A DNA stretch of 64,000 nt, taken from the NCBI GenBank assembly GCA_963922205.1, contig CAWUHX010000299.1:343219-407218 (forward strand), given 5' to 3'. Within the stretch, counting starts at the first letter, position 1; every line of letters begins with the position of its first letter. Both the position numbers and the translations under genes were made by a program. Below are positions 21,273 through 23,191 of the stretch, piece by piece. Below the pieces are notes generated by a model. That model ran no database searches and was not told where the DNA came from. It was given only the letters and a program-made list of their open reading frames with translations. This stretch comes from Romanomermis culicivorax. Lineage: Eukaryota; Nematoda; Enoplea; Mermithida; Mermithidae.

Positions 21273-21476
21273 TCACGGTGTGTAAGTCATTGGATAATCG
21301 GTCAGCTGTGCGTCTTCCGTCATCAGATACCGCAATCCCGGTGTCAAAGTCTCGAAACCTACATAGTAAAAGGTTACATAATAGTAAGGATTCACCTTGT
21401 AAGCTTCGTCCTTTAATGACGATTTGTCCTCGCCGATTTGCAATATTTCTTCGGCTTCTCTAAATTGTGAATCCAA
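21273..21476 (-). CDS. retrotransposon extra region: short bridging segment
   Basis: 68 codons containing KVNPYYYVTFYYVGFETLTP. It starts where the exonuclease-bearing frame (to 21460) is lost by a single-base shift, near a run of A and G at about 21505, and ends at a TGA after which the same frame leads into the 509-codon segment. It is best seen as a linker in one original protein. Confidence 0.5.
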   Translation of the reverse strand: MDSQFREAEEILQIGEDKSSLKDEAYKVNPYYYVTFYYVGFETLTPGLRYLMTEDAQLTDYPMTYTP

Positions 21477-22746
21477 ACCGATTTTGCCAGGCGTATACCC
21501 CTTTTTTAGATGGAAAACGGGGTTCCGACAGTGGTAACGTCGCTGCTAATTCTAAATAATAGGCCAGGCGGTCGCCTGACTTCCAGGACATGCGTTTCAT
21601 CATCTCCTGGCCTTTAGTATAACTATTTAAAAAGTTATAATTTAGCAGTGCGCTAGTTTCATAGTCGCACTCGGCTCTTGCATGAGGCCATGCCAAGTGA
21701 TAGGCCAACGGCATGAACTTACAGATGAACTCCAACTCCGGAAAGTTTCGCTCATCCAACATGCCCGAAATTTTGGCCAAATTTGGCGTATAAAAATTGG
21801 TTTTATAGGCCTGCCTATGACCTTCTATACCCACTGGGTAGTAGTTATTAGCTGAAAACACTTCCTCTGGAATTTCATCGTGCTTCCCCGCCTGTTGCCA
21901 GTATAGCTTAGCGTTTTCGTACAGCGTCAAAGAAATCTTACCATCTAAATCCCAATAGGTTCCACCTGATTTGAGATTTTCCAGGATATCCTTTGCGATA
22001 TTAACCCAGTCTGGTATTTGAACATCCTGGATTTCGTCGGGATCGCTATCTTCAGTGTACCCATCGTCCTTCATTGGTTTACTATCTCTCGGGAGCAATG
22101 GATAAAAACCACTTGGTAATTGAACTTCCTGAGGACGGACGGGGTTACACTCCGTAGGTGTGGTATAATAACCTGTGTTATTTCCCTGCATTTGTACTGC
22201 CCAACGGTTGTACATTTCGCACTTCATCATATGGTACACCATATTAGGCTGTTCCTGATTGGTTTCCAATACTGGGGAGCCTAGCCCCATTTCTCTATTT
22301 ACATTGCCCGGTATCATTAGATATTGCTGATAAAAATGTAAGGCAACATTATTGATCTGTTTGGGATCAACCTTGTTATGGTCGAAAATCTGCATTTGCA
22401 TCAGCAGTTGATCGGCCATGCCATAGTGAATCGCGGCAAACATAACCAATAACGAATAATATGCGTCTAGAGGTGCGTACCTATGCTCTTCCGGCAATAT
22501 ACGTCTTTTGGCAAACCGATCACGGTTGGCCTTCAGTGAAAAATCATACTGATAGGGGCCCACGTCTATTAGATAAAATTCCGTGAACAGTCCCTTTAAC
22601 CGAAAGGTTTCGGGACAAATACCTGTTTGAAAACACTTTTTCTCCAGGTTAACCCCTACCATGGTTAAGGCGAAACAGTCTAAATCAAAGTAATGACCCT
22701 TGGTCTTCCTAAGATATTCCCTTAAGGGGCAGTTTTGTCCCTGTCC
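21460..22746 (-). CDS. retrotransposon extra region: DEDDy 3'-5' exonuclease-like domain, C-terminal half, and downstream domain
   Basis: The open frame runs from 22746 to 21460 (ATG at 22662 is internal). Near its start is HYFDLDCFALTMVGVNLEKK, matching the FD..A.L......L segment of RNase D/EXD-type nucleases. About 45 residues later comes FAKRRILPEEHRYAPLDAYY, the Exo III motif with Tyr-x3-Asp that defines the DEDDy class. Motifs I and II lie in the preceding frame (22788-23191). The remaining 290 residues (Trp/Tyr-rich, with PDWVNIAKDILENLK and WPHARAECDYETSALLNYNF) match no family I know. In hosts such domains trim 3' ends of RNA or DNA; its role in a retrotransposon is unknown. Confidence 0.7.
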   Translation of the reverse strand, partial: GQGQNCPLREYLRKTKGHYFDLDCFALTMVGVNLEKKCFQTGICPETFRLKGLFTEFYLIDVGPYQYDFSLKANRDRFAKRRILPEEHRYAPLDAYYSLLVMFAAIHYGMADQLLMQMQIFDHNKVDPKQINNVALHFYQQYLMIPGNVNREMGLGSPVLETNQEQPNMVYHMMKCEMYNRWAVQMQGNNTGYYTTPTECNPVRPQEVQLPSGFYPLLPRDSKPMKDDGYTEDSDPDEIQDVQIPDWVNIAKDILENLKSGGTYWDLDGKISLTLYENAKLYWQQAGKHDEIPEEVFSANNYYPVGIEGHRQAYKTNFYTPNLAKISGMLDERNFPELEFICKFMPLAYHLAWPHARAECDYETSALLNYNFLNSYTKGQEMMKRMSWKSGDRLAYYLELAATLPLSEPRFPSKKGVYAWQNRFGFTI

Positions 22747-23191
22747 TTATTATCTCGCCGTGAACCACATACGTTATAAATACTTACCAAGTCCTCCAGT
22801 ACCGAATATCGGGCCAATAGCATGTCGGAATTGAGGAAGTCGTGGAGGCTGGTCCATTCCTTGAGCATCAAGGTCGTCGTATCAATAATGTAGGTTTGAC
22901 CGTTGGTCAGCGCGAAGCTTACGTAACGGGCGAATTGTTTTCCCATCAGATTGTCGACCTCTCTCATTTTAAACAAGGCGGCGACCTTATCCTGATGGAC
23001 TTTTTCAACATTAAATCCACAAACTGGCTGTCCTCTGAAGATTGATACTTCTCAGATGAAGTGGAGTACTTGGCTGACTTTCCCAATGTCTACCATTCGA
23101 GGTTCCTTGGGATTAGCCGGCCAGTATCCAAAAGTGGCTTTGAACCACTGGTCCAGTTCGTGAATTCTCATGACCCTTTTGACGTTGTAAT
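22722..23191 (-). CDS. retrotransposon extra region: exonuclease-like domain, N-terminal half
   Basis: The frame entered at a splice-acceptor-like CTTTAG|ATTACAAC (23191) runs with one in-frame TGA at about 23065, then VCGFNVEKV (Exo I position, with Asn where the family has Asp), FALTNGQTYIIDTTTL (the conserved strand and ID), and ARYSVLEDLVSIYNVCG (Exo II, with its Asp). It loses frame near 22745. Either a 1-base shift or a 47-base GTAAGT...CAG segment (22787-22741) would link it to the next entry in phase. Asn at Exo I predicts weak or no catalysis in this copy. Confidence 0.65.

What the first reader, a model, noticed from the sequence alone, without database searches (positions are those of the whole stretch)
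21460..23191. A Ty3/gypsy retrotransposon that encodes a DEDDy 3'-5' exonuclease-like domain
Seen: downstream of integrase and inside the LTR pair lies a frame with the Exo I region (FNVE), the strand TYIIDTTTL, an Exo II Asp (VLEDL) and Exo III RYAPLDAYY, in the order and rough spacing of RNase D/EXD nucleases. Known: Ty3/gypsy elements normally end after integrase or add env or a chromodomain. Inference: the element acquired a host nuclease, perhaps for processing its RNA or cDNA 3' ends or for resisting host small-RNA silencing (EXD1 relatives act in piRNA pathways). I know of no described retrotransposon family with this gene.
Basis: partly seen in the sequence, partly recalled or inferred. 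Interest (0 to 1): 0.9.

Follow-up and report, generated by a model that had tools for sequence, protein, structure and literature searches.

The report
Nematode retrotransposon carrying exonuclease-like extra gene
A decayed jumping element, probably from a mosquito-parasitic nematode, carries an extra gene whose start resembles RNA-trimming exonucleases, a combination already described in rotifers but seen here in what looks like another lineage.

Summary
The element is real: a 14.55-kb Ty3/gypsy-type LTR retrotransposon at 17329-31882 on the MINUS strand, LTRs 617 bp and 96.4% identical. Host probably Romanomermis culicivorax: 9 of 9 protein hits. An ORF3 region (about 4.4 kb, 18692-23051) lies between integrase and the 3' LTR; its start carries the reported motifs, but not in one frame: ExoI/II-like sequence is in ORF A (22725-23051), ExoIII in overlapping ORF B (21463-22746), and the ExoI Asp is Asn. 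This copy looks dead. Homology to DEDDy exonucleases is moderately supported. No Pfam exonuclease match; an ExoIII-piece profile ranks the mut-7 homolog first of 177,635 PDB sequences, at E=0.8; profile-profile P=0.0043, 0 of 300 shuffles; the two pieces rank 2 and 3 of 80. Simpler tests were negative. Not a one-off: 5 of 9 gene models carry exo-region sequence; 2 of 9 carry pol pieces, one of them with the exo region. The kind is not new: DEDDy ORF3s were described in bdelloid rotifer Juno/Vesta elements in 2017 (PMC5408684). New would be a nematode lineage without detectable dUTPase or CCHC knuckle. Selection and activity could not be tested.

The parts
31266..31882 (-). 5' LTR (617 bp), TG...CA, flanked outside by GGGGG
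   Evidence: blastn of LTR regions, 595/617 identical; boundary sequence
17329..17945 (-). 3' LTR (617 bp), flanked outside by GGGGG (possible 5-bp target duplication, but low complexity)
29697..31169 (-). gag-like ORF (490 aa); weak Retrotrans_gag
   Evidence: ORF; PF03732 E=0.089, 13.5 bits against a cut-off of 24.1
28960..29187 (-). RG-rich stretch after gag; no CCHC knuckle
   Evidence: translation; regex for CX2CX4HX4C found 0 in three minus-strand frames of the element
27592..28893 (-). protease ORF; no dUTPase detected
   Evidence: PF13975 E=9.2e-11; Pfam to E=10 on 27595-28956 listed protease families only
26083..27493 (-). reverse transcriptase and RNase H, split over two frames
   Evidence: PF00078 4.6e-15 and 6.3e-13, PF17917 4.8e-31
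24468..25735 (-). integrase, split over two frames, with H2C2 zinc finger and GPF motif at 24701
   Evidence: PF17921 1.1e-20; PF13683 5.6e-6 (26.4 bits, cut-off 26.5); GPF
22725..23051 (-). ORF A: N-terminal half of the exonuclease-like domain (ExoI-like FNVE with Asn for Asp, beta-strand region, ExoII-like Asp at residue 87)
   Evidence: translation; hhalign residues 44-75 to DEDDy columns 44-73, P=0.066, 25 of 300 shuffles reach it; rank 3 of 80
21460..22746 (-). ORF B: C-terminal half with ExoIII RYAPLDAYY (Tyr codon begins at 22479), then long unassigned ORF3 sequence
   Evidence: hhalign P=0.0043, 0 of 300 shuffles; PDB rank 1 = mut-7 homolog, E=0.8; 9 UniRef homologs
19677..21272 (-). 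ORF C: continuation of ORF3, acidic and charged, KSQT-type repeats
   Evidence: translation; no Pfam family at E<=10; matched by P0003 to P0009, 7 of 9
18692..19549 (-). ORF3 tail, Ser/Thr/Lys-rich then RG-rich
   Evidence: translation; P0005 and P0008 match

Best explanation
This is one decayed copy of a multi-copy Ty3/gypsy-type LTR retrotransposon family, probably of Romanomermis culicivorax. Its ORF3, downstream of integrase, begins with a domain descended from DEDDy 3'-5' exonucleases (RNase D / mut-7 / EXD superfamily) and continues into a long charged, RG-rich tail. Most likely mechanism (inferred, not shown): ORF3 is an RNA-binding protein of the element's ribonucleoprotein particle, whose exonuclease-like module binds or trims RNA or cDNA 3' ends while the RG-rich tail binds nucleic acid. 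In this copy the domain is split by a frame change and lacks the ExoI Asp, so an active nuclease is unlikely here. Shown: element, order, multi-copy nature. Moderately supported: DEDDy ancestry. Inferred: host and function.
For: LTRs and domain order. 9 of 9 UniRef homologs are from R. culicivorax. By tblastn to the window, 5 of 9 (P0001, P0002, P0004, P0005, P0007) carry exo-region sequence, and P0001 and P0009 also contain pre-RT or integrase segments in the same order. DEDDy: the A2 profile's rank 1 of 177,635 PDB sequences is 'Exonuclease mut-7 homolog' with ExoIII in register; a related query lists 36 distinct PDB sequences of this superfamily. Profile-profile: P=0.0043 and 0 of 300 shuffles for the ExoIII piece, P=0.066 and 25 of 300 for the other, both at co-linear positions. 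As single sequences they rank 2 and 3 of 80 window pieces, with alignments to 45 and 30 template columns against 6 for rank 1.
Against: No Pfam or NCBIfam exonuclease hit; ORF A's only Pfam matches are weak and unrelated (best E=0.058, below cut-off). PDB E-value only 0.8, with an unrelated Rab at 1.4 in second place; ORF A's profile matched nothing in PDB at E<=10. hhalign's own probabilities are low: 8% and 0.8%, 1.6% and 1.3% as single sequences, with an unrelated piece ranking first. A five-sequence bacterial profile gave no signal: 3527 of 20000 and 771 of 20000 shuffles reach the two pieces. Pairwise scores are no better than shuffles, and RT, IN and gag control pieces score higher. The pieces were chosen because they looked like the motif, so the p-values flatter. 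ExoI is Asn here, and ExoIII Asp is Glu in 2 of the 4 gene models that contain that core. Structure predictions failed: pLDDT 57 and 39.
Confidence: 0.6

Rival explanations
1. ORF3 is an unrelated structural or env-position protein; the exonuclease motifs are a chance resemblance picked out by eye from a long frame.
For: No Pfam exonuclease hit, negative five-sequence profile and pairwise tests, low hhalign probabilities, ExoI Asp absent.
Against: Two separately tested pieces both fall at the right, co-linear positions of the DEDDy profile and rank 2 and 3 of 80 pieces; best PDB sequence is a mut-7 homolog.
Confidence: 0.3
2. The domain is a non-catalytic DEDD derivative across the whole family, kept for RNA binding, as PMC5408684 says of Maelstrom and EXD1.
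For: Asn at ExoI here; Glu for the ExoIII Asp in 2 of 4 gene models with that core (P0004, P0005). PMC5408684 (passages) mentions inactive DEDD derivatives that keep RNA binding.
Against: The other 2 of 4 (P0001, P0007) keep ExoIII Asp; all are gene models of possibly decayed copies, and ExoI could be read in none of the 9.
Confidence: 0.25
3. One-off insertion of a host exonuclease gene or another transposon into this copy.
For: About 1.4 kb between integrase and ORF A with no minus-strand open stretch above 92 aa.
Against: Nine homologous gene models in the same species, two with pre-RT or integrase segments and ORF3 in the same order.
Confidence: 0.05

Closest known systems
Bdelloid rotifer Juno and Vesta LTR retrotransposons with DEDDy ORF3 (Rodriguez, Kenefick, Arkhipova 2017, PMC5408684; first of five parts of the text and passages read)
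   Same: LTR retrotransposon with ORF3 after integrase related to RNase D-like DEDDy exonucleases; GPY/F-type motif at integrase end as in Juno1-4; no chromodomain reported there, and no Pfam chromodomain in the integrase ORF here.
   Different: Probable nematode host; no dUTPase between PR and RT and no CCHC knuckle detected; ORF3 with a long charged and RG-rich tail; ExoI N-x-E in this copy, where the paper reports DEDD changed to DEED.
mut-7 homolog exonucleases (PDB 7jw2, 7jw6)
   Same: 7jw2 is the best PDB match of the ExoIII profile, core in register.
   Different: Cellular enzymes; E-value 0.8 only; the whole domain could not be aligned. The insect name Nibbler and its role in small-RNA trimming are recalled.
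Terminon/Athena (Penelope-like) elements with DEDDy ORFs
   Same: Retroelement-borne DEDDy ORF (PMC5408684 passages).
   Different: Different retroelement class; described there from bdelloid rotifers.

Membership tests
Ty3/gypsy LTR retrotransposon | Two LTRs with TG...CA | tested here: met
   617 bp, 96.4%
Ty3/gypsy LTR retrotransposon | Domain order PR-RT-RH-IN | tested here: met
   Pfam hits in order on the minus strand
Ty3/gypsy LTR retrotransposon | RT phylogeny within Ty3/gypsy | not tested
DEDDy 3'-5' exonuclease (PF01612 superfamily) | Match to curated profile | tested here: not met
   PF01612 absent at E<=10 for both pieces; ORF A gave two weak unrelated families below cut-off, ORF B none
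DEDDy 3'-5' exonuclease (PF01612 superfamily) | Profile similarity in register including ExoIII Y-x3-D | tested here: met
   (moderate; negative with the simpler tests)
DEDDy 3'-5' exonuclease (PF01612 superfamily) | ExoI D-x-E | tested here: not met
   N-x-E in this copy; not readable in the 9 other gene models
DEDDy 3'-5' exonuclease (PF01612 superfamily) | ExoII Asp | tested here: inconclusive
   Asp at ORF A residue 87 aligned to RNase D ExoII, but the score is no better than shuffles (346 of 1000)
DEDDy 3'-5' exonuclease (PF01612 superfamily) | DnaQ-like fold | tested here: inconclusive
   Models of low confidence; no fold search made
Juno/Vesta/TelKA (bdelloid) | dUTPase between PR and RT | tested here: not met
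   Pfam to E=10 shows only protease families in that ORF; decayed copy
Juno/Vesta/TelKA (bdelloid) | CX2CX4HX4C knuckle in gag (all but Vesta1b in the paper) | tested here: not met
   0 matches in three minus-strand frames of the element
Juno/Vesta/TelKA (bdelloid) | pol phylogeny | not tested
   No rotifer sequences obtained

The most novel reading that the evidence does not exclude
A nematode Ty3/gypsy lineage captured, independently of rotifers, a mut-7/Nibbler-type exonuclease (the enzyme class that trims small-RNA 3' ends, recalled) and kept it as part of ORF3, using it to process its own RNA or to blunt small-RNA silencing.
Probability: 0.12. Interest if true: 0.8.

Novelty: new variant of a known kind. 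Interest (0 to 1): 0.42.

Why it matters
If DEDDy ancestry holds, exonuclease-bearing ORF3s are not confined to rotifers but recur in other retroelement lineages, which would point to a repeatable advantage. [quoted passage not shown] elegans (PMC5408684 discussion passage), so a nematode element carrying a related domain would make the element-versus-silencing idea directly testable.

Tried and rejected
Single-protein Pfam and PDB searches of the pieces, and NCBIfam with the members of A2: no exonuclease hit; the ORF A profile against PDB: nothing at E<=10. A five-sequence bacterial DEDDy profile (after a failed command) and pairwise BLOSUM45 tests: no signal. Two structure predictions gave low-confidence models, so no fold search was made. 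Viral and prokaryotic contig scans with ORF B found no relative, nor did two scans of viral contigs with bacterial exonucleases. No second copy of the element's ORFs lies in the window. One-off insertion rejected.

Not obtainable: the window's own genome (genome search did not complete), so full-length copies, copy number, dN/dS and the ExoI state of other copies are unknown. Paper searches after all failed (time-outs; a bad term), and one look-up by DOI timed out. 'Not previously described in nematodes' is therefore NOT claimed from a literature search.

Full report
What is there. The window is AT-rich (38% GC). The finding lies inside a 14.55-kb LTR retrotransposon on the minus strand, 17329-31882. 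The LTRs (31266-31882 and 17329-17945) are 617 bp, align without gaps at 595/617 identity, begin TG and end CA, and are both bordered outside by GGGGG. That is a possible 5-bp target duplication, though it lies in G-rich sequence. In minus-strand order come a gag-like ORF (weak PF03732, E=0.089), protease (PF13975 9.2e-11), RT (PF00078), RNase H (PF17917 4.8e-31) and integrase with an H2C2 finger (PF17921 1.1e-20), with a GPF motif at 24701. ORF3 sequence runs from ORF A to the RG-rich tail (18692-23051, about 4.4 kb). RT, integrase and ORF3 are each split over frames, so this copy looks dead.

Host. The only protein-database search that was answered gave 9 hits at E<=0.001, all 9 from Romanomermis culicivorax, a mermithid nematode. 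The host is inferred from this; none of the 9 is identical to the window.

The motifs. ORF A (22725-23051) contains VCGFNVEKV (ExoI-like, Asn where the first Asp is expected), YVSFALTNGQTYIIDTTTL and YSVLEDLVSIYNVCG (ExoII-like). ORF B (21463-22746), in another overlapping frame, contains ILPEEHRYAPLDAYYSLL (ExoIII, DEDDy type).

Is it a DEDDy domain? Against: no Pfam exonuclease match at E<=10 for either piece (ORF A has two weak unrelated matches, best E=0.058) and no NCBIfam match. The ORF A profile matches no PDB sequence at E<=10. A profile of five bacterial DEDDy enzymes gave scores reached by 3527 of 20000 (ORF A) and 771 of 20000 (ORF B) shuffles. Pairwise scores against the same five are not above shuffles, and RT, IN and gag control pieces score higher against RNase D than either piece. 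For: a profile of the ORF B piece with four R. culicivorax relatives, searched against 177,635 PDB sequences, ranks 'Exonuclease mut-7 homolog' 7jw2 first, E=0.8, with ExoIII in register; the only other hit at E<=10 is a Rab, E=1.4. A related query lists 36 distinct PDB sequences of this superfamily, few among 177,635. Profile-profile comparison with 17 DEDDy sequences gave P=0.0043 (HH-suite probability 8%), reached by 0 of 300 column shuffles, for the ORF B piece (query 46-97 on template 114-158). For ORF A it gave P=0.066 (probability 0.8%), reached by 25 of 300 (query 44-75 on template 44-73). Among 80 pieces of window ORFs compared as single sequences (long ones cut to 142 aa), the two rank 2 and 3 with P=0.032 and 0.04; rank 1 (P=0.019) is a 6-column alignment. 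The pieces were preselected by eye, so I read this as moderate support, about 0.65-0.7 for ancestry. The ExoI assignment rests on position only. Structure models (pLDDT 57 and 39) were too poor to use.

Is it part of the element family? tblastn of the 9 UniRef proteins on the window shows 5 of 9 with exo-region matches (P0001, P0002, P0004, P0005, P0007; about 65-80% identity; P0002 matches part of ORF A and the sequence after ExoIII but lacks the ExoIII core). P0001 joins a pre-RT piece (27810-27751), a piece between integrase and ORF A (24029-23931) and the exo region. P0009 joins the integrase end (24908-24603) and later ORF3. These are predicted gene models, so exon joining is the annotators', but the order matches the window. 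A one-off insertion is excluded. Of the 4 models with the ExoIII core, 2 keep Asp (P0001, P0007) and 2 have Glu (P0004, P0005). No DNA of other copies was available, so selection is untested.

Mechanism. The best-supported reading is an ORF3 RNA/cDNA-handling protein of the element particle with a DEDDy-derived module and an RG-rich tail. Active trimming against RNA binding only cannot be decided. The RG-rich stretches after gag and at the end of ORF3 fit nucleic-acid binding; this is inference.

Known or new. PMC5408684 (first of five parts of the text and passages read) reports DEDDy-type ORF3s in Juno and Vesta LTR retrotransposons and in Athena elements of bdelloid rotifers, independently acquired at least twice, and suggests 3'-end processing or silencing roles. 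PMC5718144 (one passage) repeats this. So a described family with this gene does exist. The present element differs by probable host phylum, by lack of detectable dUTPase and CCHC knuckle, and by its long charged, RG-rich ORF3 tail. It therefore fails tested features of the rotifer clades while possibly working like them. Whether nematode cases are in print could not be searched (see Tried and rejected).

Noticed in passing
47735-48247 (+): ORF matching SIP1/Gemin2 (PF04938, E=1.2e-19): probably a host gene exon of the SMN complex near the element.
   Followed up: partly
32511-39033: 322-nt inverted repeats 97% complementary, 5.9 kb apart (32511-32832 / 38712-39033): looks like a DNA transposon or foldback element next to the retrotransposon.
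   Followed up: no
5837-6919: 209-nt inverted repeats 98% complementary, 665 nt apart: MITE-like.
   Followed up: no
4865-5459: 98-nt tandem repeat, 6.1 copies, 76% matches.
   Followed up: no
17192-17328 and 31998-32206: Beside both LTRs lie short G-rich stretches that match each other in inverted orientation (84-85% identity), suggesting insertion into or beside an older repeat.
   Followed up: no
16383-16446, 37815-38000, 46603-47082 and others: Dispersed repeats with a palindromic GC-rich core CCGGCGCGAAGCGCCGG or variants of it in an AT-rich setting (families D7 and D11).
   Followed up: no
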